Below, piece by piece: positions 54,632-64,000 of a stretch of DNA of 64,000 bases. The stretch is from assembly GCF_023208015.1 (NCBI RefSeq), contig NZ_CP051627.1:3640422-3704421 (forward strand), written 5' to 3'. Source of the stretch: Thermobifida alba (lineage in GTDB: Bacteria; Actinomycetota; Actinomycetes; Streptosporangiales; Streptosporangiaceae). Position 1 is the stretch's first letter. Every line of letters starts with the position of its first letter. The notes beneath the pieces are model-generated. The model was not told the origin of the DNA. It made no database searches and worked only from the letters and a program-made list of their open reading frames with translations. Made by a program: the position numbers and the translations under genes.

Positions 54632-55388
54632 GGCGGGCGGTCCCCGGGTCGGCGAACCAGTCGACGCGCCCCTCGGACCGCAGGATGCGCTTGGCCGTCG
54701 CGGCGGAGCGGTCCGCCAGTCCGGGGGCCGCCTCCCCCGCACCGGTCAGGTCGACGGCGTCGATGCCGGGGTGCGCGGCCAGCAGCGGCGCGAGCTCCGC
54801 GGTGGGCCCGGTGAGCAGGGCGGCCACGCCGTCCGGCAGTTGCGCCTCGGCCAGCGCCTCGGCGAGGGCCAGCGCGGGCAGCGGCGCGCGTTCGCTGACC
54901 GCCACCACCGCCGTGTTGCCGCCCGCGACCACCGGGGCGAGCACCGAGACCAGACCCAGCAGCGGACCGAACGGCGGGGCGACGATTGCGACGACGCCGA
55001 CGGGGGGCCTCCCGGCGCACGCCCCTCCGGCGATCTGCTCGGCGTAGCGGGTCCACCGCTCGGCGGCGGTGTCCACCAGCCGTTCGGCCAGGTCGTGGGG
55101 GACTCCGTCGGCGTCGACGACCTGGCGGACCAGGCGGGTGCGGCGGCCGCGCAGCGCGTCGGCGACCCGGTGCAGGACCCGTGCCCGCTGCCCGGCAGAG
55201 CGCCGTGCCCAGCCGTCGGCGGCCGCGCGGGCCGCACGCACCGCACGGTGGGCGTCGGCGTGCGACATCCGGGGCACCCGGCCCAGCGCGGTCCCGTCAT
55301 GGGCGACCACCGGGTAGCTCTCCGCGGGGGCGGTCCGTCCGGCGGCACGGACCGACGGATCGGCGCCGCCTTCCGCGTGTCCGGTCAT
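54600..55388 (-). CDS. half-length aldehyde dehydrogenase-like protein
   Basis: This 262-residue protein is about half the usual ALDH length. It keeps the N-terminal NAD-binding part (GVVAIVAPPFGPLLGLVS, then GGNTAVVAVSERAP, then TAKRILRSEG), but the catalytic Cys and Glu regions that normally follow are missing. It cannot be a normal dehydrogenase: either a pseudoenzyme or a decayed gene. ATG at 55388; the frame extends upstream but not as ALDH. It is convergent with and overlaps the sensor gene. Confidence 0.65.
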   Translation of the reverse strand: MTGHAEGGADPSVRAAGRTAPAESYPVVAHDGTALGRVPRMSHADAHRAVRAARAAADGWARRSAGQRARVLHRVADALRGRRTRLVRQVVDADGVPHDLAERLVDTAAERWTRYAEQIAGGACAGRPPVGVVAIVAPPFGPLLGLVSVLAPVVAGGNTAVVAVSERAPLPALALAEALAEAQLPDGVAALLTGPTAELAPLLAAHPGIDAVDLTGAGEAAPGLADRSAATAKRILRSEGRVDWFADPGTARLTAFLRPAAD

Positions 55389-55608
55389 CGCCACCCTCTC
55401 CTTTCGGGGCACCGCCCGCGCCGCAACCGCGGCCGTCGGAATCCGCCGAAGAGCGTAGTGCTTCGCCGCGCCCGGTTCATCCCTTATTCCGGTACCGCCC
55501 GGACGCGCCCGGCCCAACCGGCCGCCGCGCGCCCCCGCCGACATCCGCGCGCATCTTTCCGACACTCCCGGGCAGGTGGGGAATGTCCAGAGAACTCGGG
55601 AGGTAAGC

Positions 55609-55890
55609 ATGGAGATCGGCGGTGGATTCTTCGGCACCATCATCAGTGCCCTCTTCGTCGGCCTGATCGTCGGTGCCCTGGGACGTCTCATCGTCCCCGG
55701 CAAGCAGGACATGCCCATCTGGCTGATGCTCGTCATCGGCATCGTCGCCGCCCTGCTCGGGACCGCGATCATGGCGAGCTTCACCAGTTCCTTCTGGCTC
55801 ACCCTGATCGTCCAGGTCCTGCTGGCGGCGGCCGGTGTCTACCTCATCACGATGATGCGCGGCGGGCGCCGTCGGCACAGCCCCGTGTGA
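55609..55890 (+). CDS. GlsB/YeaQ/YmgE-type stress membrane protein
   Basis: The 93-residue protein has three hydrophobic helices, starting GGGFFGTIISALFVGLIVGALGR. It has the glycine-rich pattern and small size of the transglycosylase-associated GlsB/YeaQ family. A GGGAGG site precedes the ATG. A terminator follows. The role is in general envelope stress; details unknown. Confidence 0.82.
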   Translation: MEIGGGFFGTIISALFVGLIVGALGRLIVPGKQDMPIWLMLVIGIVAALLGTAIMASFTSSFWLTLIVQVLLAAAGVYLITMMRGGRRRHSPV

Positions 55891-55979
55891 CGTCCGCACA
55901 TCCCGCAGCACAGCCACGAGGAACGGGACCCGCGCTCCAGGGCGCGGGCCCCGTGCTGCTCGCCCGGGCCGGTCTCCCG

Positions 55980-56007
55980 GGAGCCCGCACCGTCGAGTGC
56001 GGGCTCC
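55980..56007 (+). terminator. terminator of the GlsB-type gene
   Basis: 11-bp perfect stem (55980-55990 with 55997-56007), 6-nt loop, TTCCGTTA tail. A second inverted repeat precedes it at about 55925-55951. Confidence 0.8.
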
Positions 56008-56042
56008 TTCCGTTATGCGAAGAAAAACCAACTTTCGTCGTT

Positions 56043-56075
56043 TTTGGTGATGGCGCGGAACGGCCCCGTCGGCAG
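56043..56075 (+). promoter_or_regulatory. shared surface-locus element, copy A
   Basis: TTTGGTGATG (56043-56052), 18 nt, GGCAG (56071-56075). It is preceded by TTCGTC three bases upstream, as in copy C. It lies 73 nt before the LPXTG gene start and just after the terminator at 56007. Confidence 0.5.
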
Positions 56076-56148
56076 AATCAGCGACTGTGCGGGAACCGTG
56101 CCTGCCCCGTGCCCGCACTCCCCATCCCCCGTCGACTTGGAATCCTTC

Positions 56149-57621
56149 ATGAGCTCTTCCCTGCCCCGGGGCCGCCGCGGTGGACTCTCCCGCTCCCGCG
56201 GGGTCGCCGTCGCCGGCGCCTCGACCGCGGCCCTGCTCGCCTTCGGCCTGACCGCGGCCCCCGTCTCGGCCGCCCCCGTCACGGTCAACCCCGTCTCCGG
56301 CAACCACGGCTTCCTGGTGATGACCGAAGCCGAGGCCCTGCTCGGCGGTGGCCGCTCCGAAGGCCCCGTCGCGGTCGGCGCCACCCTGGACTTCGTGGAC
56401 TACAGCGTGGCCACGGCCACCGCCGGCTCATTCGTGGCGCCCGGTGACCAGCAGCCGTCGGCGCTGGTCGTCGGCGGTGCGGTCGGCGCCCTCGGCTCCG
56501 TGGGCGAGCTGCGGGTGCACAACGGCGGCCTCGTCAGGATCGGTGACACCGGCAACGCCGAGGTCGACAACTCCGGGGAGAACACGGTCATCTCCTTCGC
56601 CCCCGTCAACGACGAGCCCTCGCGCATCACCCTCACCACCCGGCAGGCGGAGGAGACGGTCCAGGGCTCCCCGATCGACTTCGCGGCGGCCTTCGCCGAG
56701 TACCGCACCCGTTCGGCCGCGCTCGCCTCCTGCGAACCGAACGTGGTCCCGGTCGACACCGACACCGATGAACCCTTCGGCGACTCCCCCATGGCCGAAC
56801 GCGTCGCCCAGCTCACCCTGCAACCGGGCCGGCAGAACGTCTGGAACGTCTCCGACGAGGACCTGTCCAGCCTCGCGGGGATCGAGGTCGGCGCCGTCAA
56901 GCCCAGCGCCGACACCCCGCTGGTGATCAACGTGCAGACCTCCGCGGACGAGTTCGACACCTCCTTCCTGGTGCTCCCGCCCGTGGACGGGCTGGGCGCG
57001 GCGGAGGCCCCCTACGTCCTGTTCAACCTCTCCTCCGCGCACGGCCAGCTCCTCCTGGTCAGCCTGGGCACCTTCCCGGGCACCCTGTTCGCCCCCGACG
57101 CCACCGTCCTGGCGGCCCTGGCCGACGGCATGCGGGGCAACGTCATCACCCAGCGCTTCATGACCTTCCTCCTCCCCGAGGAGGGGGAGCCGACGGCGAC
57201 CGAGGACTTCGGGGAACCGGAGGAGTTCGAGGAGTTCCTGGAGATCGAGGAGGAGGTGGTGACGGAGGTGCAGGAGATTCCGGAGTTCGACAACACCCTG
57301 TACCACGTCCCCTTCGCCGCCGAGGTCGAACTGTGCGGCACCGAGGCTCCTCCCGCCGACAACGGCGACGACGACCAGGAGACCGACGAGGAGGAGCAGG
57401 AGGAGACCGGCGACGGCGGGACCACGCCTCCGCCCGGCGACCCGGACGCCACCGCCTCCCCCGCCCCCAGGACCGAGGGCCCCGAAGCCGGCGGTCCCAC
57501 GGCCGACAAGGGCCTGCCCGTCACCGGCGCCGGCCTCGTCGGCCTGATCACCGCGGCCGTCGCCATCGTCGCCGCGGGTGCCGCCGCCCTCTTCCTCACC
57601 CGCCGCCGCAGGAGCACCTGA
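56149..57621 (+). CDS. LPXTG-anchored choice-of-anchor A-type surface protein
   Basis: The 490-residue exported protein has a basic start (RGRRGGLSRSR), a hydrophobic signal (about 18-40, ending VSAA), and a body with VVGGAVGALGSVGELRVHNGG typical of choice-of-anchor A domains. An acidic Glu-rich stretch (about 370-395) and a Pro/Thr/Asp linker lead to LPVTG (about 456-460), a membrane helix and RRRR: a complete sortase signal. ATG at 56149. No sortase gene is in the window. A terminator follows. It probably forms surface fibres or adheres; the ligand is unknown. Confidence 0.85.
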   Translation: MSSSLPRGRRGGLSRSRGVAVAGASTAALLAFGLTAAPVSAAPVTVNPVSGNHGFLVMTEAEALLGGGRSEGPVAVGATLDFVDYSVATATAGSFVAPGDQQPSALVVGGAVGALGSVGELRVHNGGLVRIGDTGNAEVDNSGENTVISFAPVNDEPSRITLTTRQAEETVQGSPIDFAAAFAEYRTRSAALASCEPNVVPVDTDTDEPFGDSPMAERVAQLTLQPGRQNVWNVSDEDLSSLAGIEVGAVKPSADTPLVINVQTSADEFDTSFLVLPPVDGLGAAEAPYVLFNLSSAHGQLLLVSLGTFPGTLFAPDATVLAALADGMRGNVITQRFMTFLLPEEGEPTATEDFGEPEEFEEFLEIEEEVVTEVQEIPEFDNTLYHVPFAAEVELCGTEAPPADNGDDDQETDEEEQEETGDGGTTPPPGDPDATASPAPRTEGPEAGGPTADKGLPVTGAGLVGLITAAVAIVAAGAAALFLTRRRRST

Positions 57622-57634
57622 CCGGACAGCCGAG

Positions 57635-57670
57635 CCGGAAAGGGGGCCGCGCGGTCGGCCCCCTTTCCGG
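57635..57670 (+). terminator. terminator of the LPXTG gene
   Basis: 15-bp perfect stem (57635-57649 with 57656-57670), 6-nt loop. Confidence 0.85.
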
Positions 57671-57828
57671 TTCTCCGGGGCGGCCCACCCCGGCCGCCGG
57701 CCCACTTCCGTCAACTGGACAAAGGACAAAAAGGAGGACGGGAATACCGTTCCGGGGCGTTGCGGTCCGATGACCGGGTAGCCGTTCCCCCGTGCGATCC
57801 GGTGCGACGCCCAGGAATGGTGGTGCCC

Positions 57829-58329
57829 ATGAGCGATGACGCCCGAGGCCCGATCCAGGCGACGCGGACCTTCCCGGGAACGGCCGAGAGTTGCGGCCAG
57901 GCGCGTTCCTGGATCCGCTCCCTGATCCTTCCCTATCCGGAGATCCGCGACTCGGCGGAACTGGTCATCAGCGAACTCTTCACCAACGCGATCAGACACA
58001 CGGCGTCGGGGGACCCGGGAGGGACGGTCCGGGTGACGGTCCGGACCGAAGGCGACCCTCCGTCCCTGCTGCGCCTGGAGGTCACCGACGAAGGTCGGCG
58101 AAACCACGTGCCCAGGCAGGTGTCCCGCGCCATGCTGCCGCCCGAGGACGCGCAGAGCGGCCGCGGCCTGTTCATCACCTCGGTGGTGTCGTACGCGTGG
58201 GGGTGCTTCCCGGCCGACGGCGACGGACCCCGCCCAGCGGAGCCGGTCCGGGAACACCGCGACGGTGCCATGACCACCTGGGTGGAATTCGCCCTTCGTC
58301 AGGAGATGGAGATGGCCGGGAGCCCCTGA
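57829..58329 (+). CDS. RsbW-like ATP-binding (HATPase) protein
   Basis: The 166-residue protein is a stand-alone GHKL domain: VISELFTNAIRHTASG (N box), LRLEVTDEGRRN (G1) and SGRGLFITSVVSYAWG (G2). It matches anti-sigma/serine kinase RsbW-like proteins, many in actinomycetes. A GTTG-N13-GGGTAG run (57759-57781) upstream has a SigB-like look, but this is weak. ATG at 57829, or 57817. Sigma target unknown; it may control the surface locus (inference). Confidence 0.82.
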   Translation: MSDDARGPIQATRTFPGTAESCGQARSWIRSLILPYPEIRDSAELVISELFTNAIRHTASGDPGGTVRVTVRTEGDPPSLLRLEVTDEGRRNHVPRQVSRAMLPPEDAQSGRGLFITSVVSYAWGCFPADGDGPRPAEPVREHRDGAMTTWVEFALRQEMEMAGSP

Positions 58330-58348
58330 ACGGCTCCCGGCCATCTCC
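58308..58348 (+). terminator. terminator overlapping the stop codon
   Basis: 17-bp perfect stem (58308-58324 with 58332-58348). The left arm lies in the last codons of the HATPase gene and the loop carries its stop. It is also 56 nt before the end of the convergent TasA-like gene. Confidence 0.8.
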
Positions 58349-58403
58349 CTTCCTCGGGACCGCGGCCACGGCGGCCGGGGCCGTCGGCGGACGGGCCCGG
58401 CCG

Positions 58404-59006
58404 TCAGAGCGCCTGGGTCACCGTCGCGACCAGCCGGAAGGAGGTGGTCGTCCCGGCGTAGGCGTCGATATCGGACACGTCCGCGAAACGCAGTTTGAGG
58501 TGGATGGTACGGGTCTGCCCGACCGGCAGCCCTCCCAGCCCCGAGGCGACGGCACGACCGCCGGGAGCCGCCTCCGCGGCGATACGCTCCCAGGTCAGCG
58601 CCGGGTCGTGCCAGTCCTGCCCGGGGTCGGCGCTGACCGCCACCTCCAGCACCCTGCTCAGCGCCGCGGAGCCGCCGGGACCGCCGTCGGCGACCTCCAC
58701 CGTCTCCAAGCCGCTGACCACGCCGTCCAGGGTCCCGGTGTTGCGCAGTGACACCGCCAGCGCGCCGTCCTCCGGCCACATCAGGTCCGGCCCCACCTCC
58801 GACAGGTCCACCAGGATCGGGTCCTGGCCGGTGAGCGAGGTGGTCAGCGCCACGTCGAGGCGTCCCGCCGAGACCGGCAGCTCACCTGCGGTGGTCTGCG
58901 TGGTGAACGCGGCCTGGGTGGTCACGAGAACCCCGCACACCGCCGCCGCGGCGGCGGCGACGCTCGCCGCCACCAGCACCGGCTTGCGCAGTCTCATCCT
59001 CTTCAT
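58404..59006 (-). CDS. TasA-like protein, SipW-type signal peptide (third of tandem)
   Basis: The 200-residue protein has a basic start (KRMRLRKP), a hydrophobic segment, then QAAFTTQTTAGELPV, the SipW-type cleavage region. The body has ILVDLSEVGPD, ALAVSLRNTGTLDGVVSGLE and PVGQTRTIHLKLRF, the immunoglobulin-like TasA/camelysin repeat. It is the most diverged of three. ATG at 59006, 12 nt after the previous gene. Likely a secreted fibre subunit or accessory. Confidence 0.8.
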   Translation of the reverse strand: MKRMRLRKPVLVAASVAAAAAAVCGVLVTTQAAFTTQTTAGELPVSAGRLDVALTTSLTGQDPILVDLSEVGPDLMWPEDGALAVSLRNTGTLDGVVSGLETVEVADGGPGGSAALSRVLEVAVSADPGQDWHDPALTWERIAAEAAPGGRAVASGLGGLPVGQTRTIHLKLRFADVSDIDAYAGTTTSFRLVATVTQAL

Positions 59007-59017
59007 CCGGTCCCCCG

Positions 59018-59602
59018 TCACGCCTGGCCGAGACTGACGTCGAACATGAACTCGGTCTCGGCGCCCTGGAAGCGATTGTCGTACTCGGGGGTGCCGTTGG
59101 GCCACCGGAGCTGGAAGTGCAGTTCGCTGGAGCTGCCCGGTCCGAGCGGAGCGGGACGCCCGGGCAGGTGGTCGAGCACCGGTCCGGGGTCCAGTCCGAC
59201 CCAGCCGCTGCCGCGCGACCAGTCCGGTTCGCGGTTCCCCGGGACGAGGCTGTACCTGATCTCCAGGGCCTCACTGAGGTTCGGTCGGCTTCCGTCGGTG
59301 ACCACCACGTCGATGGAGTCGATCAGCGCGGAGAGCGAACCGGTGTTGGTGATGACCAGGGTGTAGGACTCGGCGGAGGAGGCCGGCCAGCGTCCCCCCG
59401 GAGCGGCTCCGCTGAGGCCGACCAGGCCGCTGGCCCCGTTCGGGCCGTGCTCGTCCACCTCCACCCTGAGGTTTCCCGCGGTGATCTGGCCGGGCTGGGA
59501 GACCGCGCTCGTGGAGAAGTAGGCGTAGGTGCCGCCGACGGACAACAGCAGTGCCGCACCGGCCGCGGCGACTCCCAGGGCCAGGGCGGTCCTCTTCCTC
59601 AT
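59018..59602 (-). CDS. TasA-like protein, SipW-type signal peptide (second of tandem)
   Basis: The 194-residue protein starts RKRTALALGVAAAG and has VGGTYAYFSTS, the diagnostic SipW-dependent motif, then GNLRVEVDEHGPNG, SYTLVITNTGSLSALIDSID and HFQLRWPNGTPEYDNRFQGA. About the length of TasA core proteins. It is close to the first tandem copy (LQWPNGSPEEDNPYMNA-like end block). ATG at 59602. Operon with the other two. Confidence 0.85.
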   Translation of the reverse strand: MRKRTALALGVAAAGAALLLSVGGTYAYFSTSAVSQPGQITAGNLRVEVDEHGPNGASGLVGLSGAAPGGRWPASSAESYTLVITNTGSLSALIDSIDVVVTDGSRPNLSEALEIRYSLVPGNREPDWSRGSGWVGLDPGPVLDHLPGRPAPLGPGSSSELHFQLRWPNGTPEYDNRFQGAETEFMFDVSLGQA

Positions 59603-59645
59603 GCTCGCGTCTCATCTCCCCGGATTCCTGCGACCGTGCGACGGT

Positions 59646-59671
59646 CCCGCACCGGCCTCCACCGGTGCGGG
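59646..59671 (-). terminator. hairpin between the first and second TasA-like genes
   Basis: 10-bp perfect stem (59646-59655 with 59662-59671), 6-nt loop, right after the first tandem gene's stop in transcription order. It could reduce expression of the two downstream genes. Confidence 0.55.
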
Positions 59672-59682
59672 GGTGGGCACGG

Positions 59683-60309
59683 CTAGTTCCCCTGGTTGAC
59701 CTGGTCCAGGTTCACCTGGAACTTGAAGGAGGTCGTCGCGTTCATGTACGGGTTGTCCTCCTCCGGGCTGCCGTTGGGCCACTCGATCTGGAAGTAGATG
59801 TAGACGGAGTGGCCCGCGGGCACAAGCTTGATGCCGGGCAGGTTGTCCAGCTTGCCGCTGTCCAGCGGCTCGAAGCCGGGGTTGCCGAAGGAGCCGGGCT
59901 CGAAGTCGAACTGCCTGACGACCGCGCGGATCTGCAGCCGGTCGGCCAGGTTGGGGGTGCTGCCGGCCAGGTCGACGATCTCCAGGGAGTTGATCTCACC
60001 GTCGATGCTGCCGGTGTTGGTGACCTTCAGGCGGTACCACTTGTGTCCGATGTGGGGGAAGGTCAGGTCCTCGACGTAGACGTCCCCGGGCGCGGCGTTG
60101 GTGATGTTGACCGGCTTGTTCGACACCCCGTGCCCGGACTGGTCGATGCGGACCTCCAGGTCTCCGGCCTCGATCGCCTGTTCGACGGTCCGGGCGCTGT
60201 CGGTGAAGTAGGCGTAGGTACCGCCGGTGATCGCCACCGCTGCGCCGATCACCGCCGCCGCACCCAAGCCCGCGACGAGTCTTCTGCTCTTGTTCATCTT
60301 GGTGGCCAC
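59683..60309 (-). CDS. TasA-like protein, SipW-type signal peptide (first of tandem)
   Basis: The 208-residue protein starts at a GTG with GGAAGG 6 nt upstream. NKSRRLVAGLG leads to a hydrophobic run and TGGTYAYFTDS, a textbook SipW-type signal. The body has GDLEVRIDQSG, RLKVTNTGSIDGEINSLEIVD and YFQIEWPNGSPEEDNPYMNA. This is the promoter-proximal, probably major, subunit gene. The leader is 250 nt after element copy C. Confidence 0.87.
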   Translation of the reverse strand: MATKMNKSRRLVAGLGAAAVIGAAVAITGGTYAYFTDSARTVEQAIEAGDLEVRIDQSGHGVSNKPVNITNAAPGDVYVEDLTFPHIGHKWYRLKVTNTGSIDGEINSLEIVDLAGSTPNLADRLQIRAVVRQFDFEPGSFGNPGFEPLDSGKLDNLPGIKLVPAGHSVYIYFQIEWPNGSPEEDNPYMNATTSFKFQVNLDQVNQGN

Positions 60310-60727
60310 AATGGCCCTTCCTTTCACGCCGTGAGGCGAAGCCGGGGGAAGTTCGCGGGGCAGAACCGGAGAGCGGGGACCCGAGGGTGCAGTCGGGCGG
60401 TGCCAGTCCACGCCGAACCGTCCCGTTGTCGCGGTGACGCAGCGGGACCGTCAGGGGGATGTGGCGCGGCTTCGCACCCGCAGCACGCCCGTACCGGCGG
60501 TGTCGCCACCGCGGTGGCCGTGCTCCGCCACCGGACCCTCCGGTTCTGCCGTAGAGCACTCTGCCGATCCGCCGTTCCCCGGTCATCCCCAAAGTGGACG
60601 AAGTCGTTTCCCCCTTTTTTGGCGATGAGCCCCCGCTCCGCCCCGGGCAGTCTGGTCGGTGATATCCGTGGTCGTGGCCCAGACCGCCGACAACAGTTCC
60701 CAACGTCCCGGTTCGAGGATCGACAGC
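60310..60727. promoter_or_regulatory. divergent surface-locus promoter region with two element copies
   Basis: This 418-nt gap between the TasA-like operon (leftward) and the 60728 gene (rightward) has no gene. Copy B reads TTTGGCGATG (60618-60627), 18 nt, GGCAG (60646-60650). Copy C, on the minus strand, has TTTGGGGATG (60593-60584), 18 nt, GGCAG (60565-60561). They are back to back about 25 nt apart. Confidence 0.55.
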
Positions 60728-61216
60728 ATGAGCATCAACCGCGCCGACCGCGGCGCCGGCACAGCGACACGGCAGCCGAACCCGTCGGCCGCGGCGGTCC
60801 GCTCCGTCGCTCTGGTCGTGGTGTTCGCCGCCGCGTCGGCCGCGGCAGCGCTGTCCCTGCTGTCCCTGGCGGGCACGAGCGCCGCCTTCACAGTGCGCGC
60901 CACCACTCCCCCCATCGAGGTGATCGCCCCCGCCCCCACAGCCTCCGCGTCCCCCACCGCCCCCGCGGAGCCGACACCCCCCGCCGCGGACCCCTCCCCC
61001 TCGGCCCCGGTCTCCCCCGCGTCCTCCCCGCAGCAGGAGGAGGGTGCCGGAGCACGACCGTCCCCACAGGAGTCCTCGGGGGTCCCCCAGGACGCCCCCT
61101 TCGAGGGGGACGGCCAAGGACGCTCCCCTCGTTCCCCCCACGGCGGCCTGTCCTCGTCCGACCCGGACGCCTCCACCGCACGAGAACCGAGAGGTGGCGA
61201 CTTTGCGCAGGAGTGA
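60728..61216 (+). CDS. Pro/Ser-rich exported protein
   Basis: The 162-residue protein has a basic start, one hydrophobic helix (about 24-49) and a TSAAFTVRATT motif like the SipW-type cleavage region of the TasA genes. The rest is Pro/Ala/Ser-rich, apparently disordered (wall-spanning type), ending GGDFAQE. The next gene starts inside its end (GTG at 61194). Function unknown; probably an adapter or spacer in the same structure. Confidence 0.65.
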   Translation: MSINRADRGAGTATRQPNPSAAAVRSVALVVVFAAASAAAALSLLSLAGTSAAFTVRATTPPIEVIAPAPTASASPTAPAEPTPPAADPSPSAPVSPASSPQQEEGAGARPSPQESSGVPQDAPFEGDGQGRSPRSPHGGLSSSDPDASTAREPRGGDFAQE

Positions 61217-61985
61217 ACCCTCCACCGCCCGGTCGATCGCCGCACGGACCGCCGCGCTCCTGTTGTGCCCCGCCCTGGTGCTGGCCTCCGGCGCCCCGGT
61301 CCTCGCGGAGGGCTCCCCCCGGCCCGGCGGAGTGGTCCGGATCGGCCAGAAGGTGGACGTGAGCGGCTTCCACGGTCTCGACGTGTCCGACATCGCCCCC
61401 GGCTACGAGGACTCCTGGCTGGTCACCGTCGTCAACGAGCGCCCCGAGCCGGTGACCGTCGGGGTGCGGGTGGACGACCTGCGCAACGCCGAGAACGGGT
61501 GCAGCGGCCCCGAGTCCCGGGTGGACGACACCTGCGACGGTGACGGAGAACTGGGCGAGCACCTGCGGTTGCGGCTGGGCACCCCGGACAACGTCCGCAT
61601 GTTCAGCGCGCCGTTGGACGAGGCCGTCTCGGGCAGCGGCCAGCTCGTCACCGTCCCCGCACAGGGCGAGACCGAGGTGGTGATCGGCCTGCGCCTGCCC
61701 GCCAGCACCGGCAACGAGGTGCAGACCGACTCGGTGGACTTCGTCCTGGTGTGGCGCGCCGAGACGGTTCTGGGCACCGTGCCGGAGACGGCCGAGGACG
61801 GGGTGGAGCTGCGGTCGACCGTCGTGGGCGGCGACAGCTCCGCGGACCTGGCCCAGACGGGCGCCCGGATCATGCTGCTGGTCGGCCTGGCGGTGGCCCT
61901 GGTCGCGGGCGGCGCCCTGCTGTTTCTCATGACGCGGCGAGGCGGAGCGGAACGGCAGCCGGCGGACCGTTCTACCGAACGGTGA
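61194..61985 (+). CDS. TasA-like surface protein with LAXTG sorting signal
   Basis: The 263-residue protein starts at a GTG after GAGAACCGAGAG (or TTG at 61203). Signal peptide (about 12-38). The body has DIAPGYEDSWLVTVVNERPEP and ENGCSGPESRVDDTCDGDGE, matching the TasA-like domain with a conserved Cys pair. It ends LAQTG (219-223), a membrane helix and TRRGG, a class E sortase signal. It is joined to the upstream gene by a 23-nt overlap. Likely a wall-anchored base or tip. Confidence 0.85.
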   Translation: MATLRRSEPSTARSIAARTAALLLCPALVLASGAPVLAEGSPRPGGVVRIGQKVDVSGFHGLDVSDIAPGYEDSWLVTVVNERPEPVTVGVRVDDLRNAENGCSGPESRVDDTCDGDGELGEHLRLRLGTPDNVRMFSAPLDEAVSGSGQLVTVPAQGETEVVIGLRLPASTGNEVQTDSVDFVLVWRAETVLGTVPETAEDGVELRSTVVGGDSSADLAQTGARIMLLVGLAVALVAGGALLFLMTRRGGAERQPADRSTER

Positions 61986-62208
61986 ACACCTCGTCCGTGC
62001 ACGCGTCTCCGACCCCCCGAAGAAAATTCAAAAACTTCATGAGATGCTCCGATTCATATCAATTCTTCGTAAAATCGCTGACGGGCGACACGAACCGGTG
62101 TTGTTCCCTCCGTCCGTTCGACGCATCACGCGAGAACGGGTTTTCCGCCGCGTCGCACAGCCGCGGTGACCAGGCCCGCGAGGCACGCGAACGCGAAGGG
62201 GAGAGCAC

Positions 62209-62916
62209 ATGGACGACCGTCTCGACCAGGTCGGCGACGGTACTTCGCCGCCCGGCGGACTCTCGGAGGACGACCACGGGAAAGAGCCGCCGGACCCCGG
62301 ACCCAAGAAACGTTCCGTGATTCTCCGCGTCCTCTCCGCACTGTTCCGGATCACCGTGACGATTCTCGTGCTCGTCGCACTGGCGATCGTCTTCTCCGTG
62401 TCGGTGCTGCCCCGTGTCACCGGCGCCCAGGCCCTGATCGTGCTCAGCGGCAGCATGGAACCCACCCTCCCGGTCGGCTCGGTGGTGATCGCCGGCCCCG
62501 TGGCGCCCGACGAGGTCGAGGTGGGCGACATCATCACGTTCACCCACGCCGCCCCGGCCCAGACGGAGGTCGCCGAGTCCGCCTCCGCCCCCCTGGTGAC
62601 CCACCGGGTGATCGACGTCGAGACGACCGCCGAGGGCACGTTCTTCCACACCCAGGGGGACGCCAACACGGTCCCCGACGACCCCCCGGTCCCCGCCGCC
62701 GACGTCCAGGGGAGGGTGTGGTACCACATCCCCTACTTCGGCTACGCCCAGCAGGCCCTGGTCCAGGGGCCGACCCTCGTCTACGTTCTGGCCGGTCTGC
62801 TCTTCGTCTTCGGCATCTGGCTGCTCAGCGTGGCGCTCGGCGACGACGAGCCGTCCGACGACGACCGGCCGCGGCCGGTCCCCCCGGTGGCGGGCGGAGG
62901 GGGCGCGTCCCGATGA
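62209..62916 (+). CDS. sipW: SipW-like ER-type signal peptidase I
   Basis: The 235-residue protein has a Pro/Asp-rich cytoplasmic N-terminus (1-35), a membrane helix (about 42-68) and the Ser82 nucleophile (VLSGSMEPTL). It uses His132 (LVTHRVID) rather than Lys, the hallmark of the ER/SipW class. VGDIITFTHAA and GDANTVPDDPP are the next boxes. A second helix (about 185-210) and an acidic tail follow. It should cleave the TasA-like precursors. ATG after GGGGAGAG. The 220-nt upstream gap (61986-62208) is relatively AT-rich with no gene seen. Confidence 0.93.
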   Translation: MDDRLDQVGDGTSPPGGLSEDDHGKEPPDPGPKKRSVILRVLSALFRITVTILVLVALAIVFSVSVLPRVTGAQALIVLSGSMEPTLPVGSVVIAGPVAPDEVEVGDIITFTHAAPAQTEVAESASAPLVTHRVIDVETTAEGTFFHTQGDANTVPDDPPVPAADVQGRVWYHIPYFGYAQQALVQGPTLVYVLAGLLFVFGIWLLSVALGDDEPSDDDRPRPVPPVAGGGGASR

Positions 62917-62956
62917 GCCTTCCCGCTCTGCCCCCGTAGTGAAGGACGGTTGCACC

Positions 62957-64000
62957 GTGCGCAGACTCGTTGTGGAAGCAGGCGTCCTGCTGGCGCTGGT
63001 CATCGGCAGCGCGCTCACGCTCTCCGCCCTGGAGCCCTGGGTCTCGCTGACCTCCGGGGCGATGGCGACCATGGCGATGTTCGCGGCGGCCACCGCGGTG
63101 GCCGCCGGATTCGCCGCCGAACTGGTCACCCGGCTCTCCGAACAGCCCTCGCTGCGCCGGATCGCGGCCGCGATGATGCTCTACGGCATGGTGGTCATCC
63201 CCCCACGGCCTCGGGGCTGGCCGCCGCCACCGTCGACACCATCGTGGTGGCCACGATCCGGCACACCGGCACGCTGCTGACGATCGGTCTGCTGCTGCTC
63301 GCGGTGGTCCCCTTCGACCGGCCCCGCCCCTGGCCGATGCGTCCGCTGCGGACGCCGGCGACCGGTCTGCGCGGCCTGTTCGTCGCAACGGTGTGCTCCC
63401 TGGCCGCGGGGGCGGTCGCCGCGGTGTTCCCCGAAACCGCCCACCTGGTGGTCCGCTCGCCCTTCCTGCTCTACGGCGCCGCGCTGCTGTGGCTGCACGT
63501 CGCGTTGACGACCCTGGTGACGGGACTGCTGCGGCGGCACCGCATGCGGGTGTGGACCGGTTTCGGACAGCTCGCCATCGTCCTGGGGCACGCGCCCCGG
63601 TTCTGGAGCGGCGACCCGCTGCTGTACTCGCCGCTGCTGGTCCCGGCGATCCGCGCGCTGGGCACGACCCTGGTCCTGCTGGCCGTGCTCCAGGTCGCCT
63701 ACCGGACCTACCAGCGGTTCCACCTCGACCGGGAGCGACTCGCCAAGGCCGAGGCCGAGGCCGTCGAGGCACGCGAGCGGCTGTCGACGCAGGCGCACGA
63801 ACTCCGCAACGCCCTGGCCGGGGTGGACGGCGCGGCGCAGCTGCTCACCATGGACGACCCGGAAGGGAGGGTCGACCGCGCCGCCCTGCGCGCCGCGCTG
63901 TCGGCGGAACTGAACCGGATGCGGGCCATGCTGTCCCCGCAGTCGGAGCAGAACCGCCAGGAGCGGACCCGGCTCCGGCCGCTGCTGGAGCAGCTGGTGC
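62957..64000 (+). pseudogene. sensor histidine kinase, frameshifted here and truncated by the window
   Basis: Starting at a GTG, the reading continues 80 codons of membrane helices and then leaves frame at a run of six C (about 63198-63204). The continuation (from 63211, frame -1) is open to the window end. It encodes about five more helices, AKAEAEAVEARERLSTQAHE and the H-box-like AHELRNALAGVDGAAQLL. One inserted C would restore a single kinase gene, so this is either a real frameshift or a sequencing error. It may regulate the surface locus next to it. The catalytic domain is beyond the window. Confidence 0.6.

What the first reader, a model, noticed from the sequence alone, without database searches (positions are those of the whole stretch)
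56043..60650. A repeated promoter-like element marks the surface-protein locus
Three copies of TTTGG-N-GATG, 18 nt, GGCAG occur: 56043-56075 (+), 60618-60650 (+) and 60593-60561 (-). The spacing is identical in all three. Copies A and C also share TTCGTC three bases upstream. They precede, respectively, the LPXTG gene, the Pro/Ser-rich/LAXTG operon and the TasA-like operon, and occur nowhere else that I noticed. This suggests one dedicated sigma factor or activator for the whole structure. The exact element is not one I know from the literature.
Basis: seen in the sequence. Interest (0 to 1): 0.75.

Follow-up and report, generated by a model that had tools for sequence, protein, structure and literature searches.

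The report
Shared promoter of a surface-fibre locus
Three nearly identical gene switches, found nowhere else in this bacterium's genome, sit in front of its surface-protein genes and are probably all turned on by one sensor-regulator pair encoded beside them.

Summary
TTTGGNGATG-N18-GGCAG occurs three times in the window and in the whole 4.9-Mb genome, before the LPXTG, Pro/Ser-LAXTG and TasA-like genes. The genome is a Thermobifida species. Copies lie at the same promoters in all eight of 200 family genomes in which this locus was found: B before the TasA-like gene in 8 of 8, C before the LAXTG genes in 7 of 7 that have them, A in the 2 of 2 with an LPXTG homologue in the fetched stretch. The spacing is not strictly fixed: 3 of 8 B copies have 19 nt, and one C copy is degenerate. 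The alignment suggests what the parts are. GGCAG begins GGCANNNT, a sigma-70-type -10 (CANNNT) whose A and T are invariant in the 16 of 17 copies aligned. YTYC-N6-TTTGRNGATG lies at about -52 to -33, where an activator replacing a -35 would bind. The best candidate is the NarL/LuxR-type response regulator encoded with a membrane histidine kinase behind sipW; it and the TasA-like gene were found in the same eight of 200 genomes. No sigma-factor match was listed in the loci (list cut). A dedicated activator is more likely than a dedicated sigma factor. Binding, start sites and signal are unproven.

The parts
56043..56078 (+). Copy A: TTTGGTGATG-N18-GGCAGAAT, promoter of the LPXTG (choice-of-anchor A) gene; TTCGTC at 56034-56039; predicted -10 CAGAAT 56073-56078
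   Evidence: conserved with 1 mismatch in GGCAG before the LPXTG orthologue of genome G003
60558..60593 (-). Copy B: TTTGGGGATG-N18-GGCAGAGT, promoter of the tasA-like operon; TTCGTC at 60602-60597; predicted -10 CAGAGT 60563-60558
   Evidence: copy present before the TasA-like gene in 8 of 8 genomes with the locus
60618..60653 (+). Copy C: TTTGGCGATG-N18-GGCAGTCT, promoter of the Pro/Ser-rich - LAXTG genes; predicted -10 CAGTCT 60648-60653
   Evidence: TTTGGCGATG in 7 of 7 genomes with a LAXTG homologue in the locus; behind it GGCAG at 18 nt in 5, GTGCAG in one, AACAG three bases further in one
60558..60653 (.). Divergent regulatory unit B/C: the two TTTGG starts are 25 bp apart in 6 and 24 bp in 1 of the 7 genomes that have both
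56149..57621 (+). LPXTG surface protein, choice-of-anchor A / ice-binding-like adhesive domain
   Evidence: PF20597 3.3e-39, TIGR04215 9.1e-31
59683..60309 (-). TasA-like protein with SipW-type signal peptide (start codon GTG 60309 inferred from the Shine-Dalgarno-like sequence); head of the tasA-like operon
   Evidence: PF12389 7.3e-8; TIGR04088 cognate_SipW, both run on 59683-60303
59018..59602 (-). Second TasA-like protein, SipW-type signal peptide
   Evidence: PF12389 7.1e-6; TIGR04088
58404..59012 (-). Third protein, weakly TasA-like
   Evidence: no Pfam or NCBIfam family; tblastn 26% to the TasA-like reading, 1.9e-7
60728..61216 (+). Pro/Ser-rich protein (start ATG 60728 inferred)
   Evidence: no Pfam family for 60659-61216; similar in G001-G003
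61113..61985 (+). LAXTG-type protein, probably cell-wall anchored
   Evidence: LAXTG domain matches below cut-off; homologue in 7 of 8 loci
62209..62916 (+). SipW-like signal peptidase I
   Evidence: TIGR02228 3.3e-28, over cut-off
62939..64000 (+). Membrane histidine kinase (about 500 aa in G003), start uncertain, running past the window end to L004:823; its frame changes inside a C-run near 63200 in this record
   Evidence: PF02518 for the G003 and G047 orthologues; one open frame in G003, two frames here. The response regulator gene follows at L004:938-1615 (match 3704937-3705611 in the genome), outside the window

Best explanation
Each copy is an activator-dependent promoter of one small regulon. 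GGCANNNT carries a sigma-70-type -10 hexamer CANNNT preceded by GG. TTTGRNGATG, together with YTYC about one helical turn upstream, is a binding site at about -52 to -33 (centre about -42) that overlaps and replaces a -35. The activator is most likely the NarL/LuxR-family response regulator encoded with a membrane histidine kinase directly behind sipW. When phosphorylated it would switch on, together, the TasA-like operon (B), the Pro/Ser-rich/LAXTG pair (C) and, where present, the LPXTG adhesin (A). B and C form one divergent, closely spaced control region. Shown: the sequences, their uniqueness in the genome, conservation, invariant positions, and co-occurrence with the regulator. Inferred: that it is a promoter, the -10 assignment, and that this response regulator is the activator.
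For: Three exact copies genome-wide, all before surface genes. Copies at the same promoters in 8 of 8 genomes, of 5 genera, in which the response regulator was found among 200. The TasA-like gene (E up to 1e-10) was found in the same 8 of 200. Copy A is present with the LPXTG gene (2 of 2); gene and copy are both absent from the corresponding interval in the other two Thermobifida genomes. TTTG, GATG, the second G and the A and T of GGCANNNT, and a C seven bases upstream of TTTGG are invariant in the 16 aligned copies while the spacer is much less conserved. A model trained on the 10 Thermobifida copies has three of the seven held-out copies as its three best sites outside Thermobifida in 200 genomes. 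The regulator has receiver and GerE domains over cut-off and near full-length similarity to VraR, NarL, DevR and DesR. No listed sigma-factor match lies in the loci (cut). The region has no consensus -35/-10 pair, although shuffles have only 0.1 on average, so this is weak.
Against: No binding or start-site data. Regulator, TasA-like gene and element are one linked locus, so co-occurrence cannot separate 'bound by this regulator' from 'inherited together', and the 16 copies are related, not independent. A dyad TCRTC-N9-GATGR is visible in B (52% complementary cells at the best centre; no null was run) but not in C, so the form of the site is unsettled. The first -10 position is C (15) or A (1), not T. 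Distant regulator homologues (39-48% identity) have no element and no recognisable TasA-like gene nearby: 17 of the 17 such loci I examined among the 80 returned, and 7 of 7 from the class search. The held-out model missed 3 of 7 held-out copies at E 0.003 and gave 2 unrelated sites in the 192 genomes without the locus, one of them as strong as a true copy.
Confidence: 0.66

Rival explanations
1. A dedicated alternative (ECF-type) sigma factor reads the element, with TTTGGNGATG as -35 and GGCAG as -10.
For: Two blocks with near-fixed spacing; 17-35 PF04542 matches per genome in the eight genomes, so candidates exist elsewhere; an RsbW-like ATPase gene lies next to the tasA-like operon in the four Thermobifida loci.
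Against: None of the PF04542 matches listed lies within any of the eight loci (the table was cut). The conserved -10 extends to CANNNT, a sigma-70 pattern. Conserved bases reach to about -52 (YTYC), further than a sigma factor normally contacts (established knowledge). No GGAAC/CGTC pair (recalled ECF consensus).
Confidence: 0.13
2. An activator other than the neighbouring response regulator (encoded elsewhere) binds the element.
For: Distant homologues of the kinase-regulator pair exist without recognisable TasA-like genes or the element. The genome surely encodes other regulators (the regulator query alone had 54 unscreened first-look candidates).
Against: The response regulator (55-86% identity) is the only transcription regulator I noticed conserved in all eight loci (and the part that was shown; its output was cut), and its HTH region is strongly conserved.
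Confidence: 0.15
3. The copies are only remnants of promoter duplication with no special regulator: ordinary weak housekeeping promoters that happen to share ancestry.
For: B and C are adjacent and inverted, compatible with duplication; the -10 is sigma-70-like.
Against: The same narrow set of columns stays invariant across five genera and three positions while spacers diverge; no consensus -35.
Confidence: 0.05
4. Chance matches.
For: The bare motif occurs once each in 18 of 192 family genomes without the locus, more often than the backwards control (3 matches in 200 genomes), so it can arise by chance or in coding sequence.
Against: 0 in 100 shuffles; the only three in 4.9 Mb are at one locus; conserved across genera.
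Confidence: 0.01

Closest known systems
Class II activator-dependent promoters of NarL/LuxR-family response regulators (recalled: VraR, DevR/DosR, NarL)
   Same: Site overlapping the -35 region, sigma-70-type -10, response regulator of the same architecture
   Different: The motif YTYC-N6-TTTGRNGATG is not a site I recall for any of them; clear dyad only in B; binding not shown
Bacillus subtilis tapA-sipW-tasA matrix operon (recalled)
   Same: SipW-type signal peptides and a SipW-like peptidase encoded together, matrix-protein-like subunits
   Different: Here LPXTG/LAXTG proteins and a kinase-response regulator pair belong to the locus; TasA and SipW equivalog cut-offs are not met; control would be by a response regulator, not SinR/Spo0A
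ECF sigma-factor regulons (recalled)
   Same: Few promoters, two-block motif, one locus
   Different: No listed sigma gene in the loci (cut); -10 looks sigma-70-like; upstream conserved block too far

Membership tests
Activator-dependent sigma-70-type promoter (class II geometry) | -10 with A at the second and T at the sixth position | tested here: met
   A and T invariant in 16 of 16 aligned copies; first position is C (15) or A (1), not T; the 17th, degenerate copy (C of G056, CAGTGA) was left out and would not meet it
Activator-dependent sigma-70-type promoter (class II geometry) | No good -35 hexamer | tested here: met
   No -35/-10 pair found by scan, 0.1 expected in shuffles; bases at a 17-bp spacer are ATGGCG, ATGACC, ATGAGC in A, B, C; ATGACC of B matches TTGACA in 4 of 6
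Activator-dependent sigma-70-type promoter (class II geometry) | Conserved site overlapping the -35 region, centred near -41 | tested here: met
   TTTGRNGATG at -42 to -33 and YTYC ten bases upstream, counted from CANNNT in the N18 copies; the numbering rests on the inferred -10
Activator-dependent sigma-70-type promoter (class II geometry) | Transcription start about 7 nt behind the -10 | not testable with these tools
   needs start-site mapping
Regulon of a NarL/LuxR-family response regulator | Receiver plus GerE domain protein with partner kinase in the locus | tested here: met
   PF00072 and PF00196 over cut-off; kinase PF02518 in the two orthologues scanned; both genes present in 8 of 8 loci
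Regulon of a NarL/LuxR-family response regulator | Repeated half-sites (dyad or tandem) in the operator | tested here: inconclusive
   52% complementary cells at the best centre for B, 40% for A, 38% for C, at different centres; no null run
Regulon of a NarL/LuxR-family response regulator | Direct binding | not testable with these tools
   needs footprinting or DAP-seq
ECF sigma-factor promoter | Sigma gene in or beside the locus | tested here: not met
   No listed PF04542 match inside the eight fetched loci (list cut before its end, weakest matches unseen)
TasA (B. subtilis equivalog) | NCBIfam NF046066 at cut-off | tested here: not met
   16.7 bits against 450; but SipW-type signal peptide TIGR04088 is met
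SipW (Bacillus equivalog) | NCBIfam NF046067 at cut-off | tested here: not met
   76.1 bits against 190; TIGR02228 signal peptidase I met

The most novel reading that the evidence does not exclude
A kinase-response regulator pair dedicated to one structure: it reads the cell envelope through its membrane domain and controls exactly three promoters, all for one TasA-like/sortase-anchored surface fibre of Thermobifida and a few related actinomycetes, through a previously undescribed operator-promoter module. A conserved hairpin in the roughly 240-nt leader of the tasA-like operon may add a second control on the RNA.
Probability: 0.4. Interest if true: 0.55.

Novelty: new member of a known kind. 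Interest (0 to 1): 0.42.

Why it matters
TasA-like fibres are best known from Bacillus (recalled). Here a compact actinomycete locus couples TasA-like subunits, a SipW-like peptidase, LPXTG/LAXTG proteins and a two-component system. The element names the likely complete regulon in this genome (three promoters) and gives precise bases to mutate, so the link from a membrane signal to a surface structure becomes directly testable in a thermophile not known as a pathogen (recalled).

Tried and rejected
Strict N18 as a defining feature: rejected, since 3 of 8 B copies have N19. The exact matches in 18 of 192 family genomes without the locus: treated as chance or coding. All 18 lie in stop-free frames of 600 bases or more in the stretches held, several are near-identical between genomes, and those genomes gave no regulator at E 1e-40 and no TasA-like gene at E 1e-10. 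Long open frames are weak evidence in GC-rich DNA: the two true sites L012 and L024 also lie in frames of 834 and 1917 bases. The next sites found with model R1 (G257 and G006 at 24.3 and 23.7 bits, G038 at 23.1): the first two are near-identical to each other and I take them for coding sequence by eye; G038 was not resolved. Rfam: one match far below its gathering score in 55000-64000. Distant regulator homologues: of the 80 loci I examined the first 19; two are T. cellulosilytica and N. ansamitocini, and the other 17 (Pseudonocardia, Actinomycetospora, Nocardioides, a Pseudonocardiales MAG; some only 4-5 kb long) show no TasA-like gene and no element with GGCAG, 16 of them with a kinase. The seven class-level homologues likewise, one held in 10.7 kb and one in 13 kb. 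A palindromic operator common to all copies: not supported for C. Literature: no paper on this element was recognised in the listings (7 of 7 papers listed; 3 of 3; 12 of 30; 12 of 109; 12 of 24; 8 of 8; 10 of 73). One search searched four letter strings of the motif; the 8 papers have titles on other subjects. Only listings and abstract starts were seen; no paper was opened. Comparisons with VraR, NarL, DevR, ECF consensus and B. subtilis TasA biology are recalled apart.
Full report
Observation. One hundred shuffles of the window gave none. The whole 4.9-Mb genome, one contig, has exactly these three and no control match. With GGCANNNT and up to two mismatches there are 3, 2 and 36 matches at 0, 1 and 2 mismatches, against 21 controls in all, so the set in this genome is most likely complete at three.

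Organism and locus. The same-genus genome G001 has a contig of the length of one of Thermobifida cellulosilytica TB100 (567,282 bases), and G056 one of the length of a Nocardiopsis ansamitocini contig (675,640 bases), so the window is from a Thermobifida species (inference). Around the copies lie an LPXTG protein with a choice-of-anchor A domain, three TasA-like proteins (two with SipW-type signal peptides, one weakly similar), a Pro/Ser-rich protein, a LAXTG-type protein and a SipW-like signal peptidase, then a histidine kinase and a NarL/LuxR-type response regulator.

Conservation. In the genus, 4 of 4 genomes have exact matches, seven in all, all at this locus. In 200 family genomes the response regulator (E up to 1e-40) is found in 8 and the TasA-like protein (E up to 1e-10) in the same 8; the order-wide search gave the same 8 of 297. 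In these eight, copy B lies before the TasA-like gene in 8 of 8 (TTTGGGGATG in 5, TTTGAGGATG in 3; spacing 18 in 5 and 19 in 3). Copy C lies before the Pro/Ser-LAXTG genes in the 7 that have a LAXTG homologue (TTTGGCGATG in 7; GGCAG at 18 nt in 5, GTGCAG in one, only AACAG three bases further in one). Copy A lies before the LPXTG gene in the two Thermobifida genomes in which that gene was found; the other two have neither in the interval between the flanking genes. The B and C starts are 25 bp apart in 6 genomes and 24 in one. Outside the genus the exact motif occurs once each in 20 of 196 genomes: in two of these (G026, G044) it is copy C of this locus, and 18 are among the 192 genomes without the regulator. 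The backwards control gives 3 in 200. I take the 18 as chance or coding matches.

What the parts are. In the alignment of 16 of the 17 copies, TTTG, GATG, a C seven bases before TTTGG, and the second G, the A and the T of GGCANNNT do not vary; most of the spacer does. The copies are related by descent, so this is not 16 independent events, but three different promoters share it. CANNNT is a sigma-70-type -10 with C at its first position. Counting from it, TTTGG is -42 to -38, GATG -36 to -33, and TTCGTC of A and B -51 to -46. This is where an activator that overlaps the -35 would sit. No consensus -35/-10 pair is found, but few are expected by chance either. B shows an imperfect dyad TCRTC-N9-GATGA; C does not.

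Held-out test. A sequence-only model from the 16 copies ranks those 16 first in 297 genomes (29.6-42.5 bits; best other 24.3), but these are its own training rows. A model from the 10 Thermobifida copies alone, run on 200 genomes with stricter filters, has as its three best sites outside Thermobifida copies B and C of G044 and B of G056; B of G026 is at the chance level (22.7 bits, beside an unrelated 22.2). At E 0.003 it recovers 4 of 7 held-out copies, with 2 unrelated sites.

Who reads it. The response regulator has receiver and GerE domains, is similar over nearly its whole length to VraR, NarL, DevR and DesR, and its HTH region is strongly conserved among the eight. No PF04542 match listed lies within the eight fetched loci, although the list was cut before its end. 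I therefore prefer activation by this regulator, with an unknown signal sensed by the kinase's membrane domain (read from its hydrophobic N-terminal half; not scanned with a predictor). More distant homologues (39-48%) occur without recognisable TasA-like genes or the element: 17 of 17 examined, 16 with a kinase, among 80 loci returned, and 7 of 7 from the class search, which found 11 of 394 genomes in all. Two of those seven have weakly SipW-like stretches nearby. So the pairing with this fibre locus seems special to a few genera. Because regulator, element and fibre genes are one linked locus, the co-occurrence is not independent proof.

Further detail. The kinase and regulator genes follow sipW closely. 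The 223-bp gap before sipW holds no copy of the element but a different conserved stretch containing CGTAAAAT, seen in the five genomes printed, so the regulator genes may have their own promoter (inference). The B transcript would carry a leader of about 240 nt with a conserved hairpin (7 of 8 genomes).

Verdict. A real, conserved, locus-specific promoter module, probably an activator-dependent promoter of a three-promoter regulon. It is a new member of a known kind; the operator sequence was not recognised in the paper listings seen, most of them capped and all from the held open-licence library.

Noticed in passing
window 60304-60557 (-): The leader of the tasA-like operon (about 240 nt) holds a conserved inverted repeat (GGTCCCGCTGC ... 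GCAACGGGACG on the minus strand) whose loop varies in length among genomes. In the predicted structure of the whole leader 14 of 42 pairs have at least one two-sided change, but the covariation term is small (-0.22; 7 of 8 genomes).
   Followed up: partly
window 62939-63400: The histidine kinase reading frame changes inside a run of C near 63200; the orthologue in G003 is one open frame. Sequencing error or a real break cannot be told apart here.
   Followed up: partly
window 61986-62208: A conserved stretch containing CGTAAAAT lies before sipW in the five genomes compared, a possible separate promoter of sipW-kinase-regulator.
   Followed up: no
window 57829-58329: Gene for an RsbW-like (HATPase_c_2) protein beside the tasA-like operon in the four Thermobifida loci; a homologue lies further off in N. 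ansamitocini and one is cut by the end of the G044 stretch.
   Followed up: no
L042 (genome G047): Reduced locus: kinase, regulator, one TasA-like gene and an LCP-type gene, no SipW or LAXTG homologue found in the 19 kb fetched; copy B present, no copy C found.
   Followed up: partly
L051 and L055 (genomes G327 and G421): Distant homologues of the kinase-regulator pair (43-48%) have weakly SipW-like stretches nearby (4.5e-5 and 7.8e-7) but no recognisable TasA-like gene and no element.
   Followed up: no
window 60454-60470 (+): GGGGGATG, similar to the element core, is conserved downstream of B within the leader of the tasA-like operon in the four Thermobifida genomes, G044 and N. ansamitocini; it could be a further half-site.
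   Followed up: no
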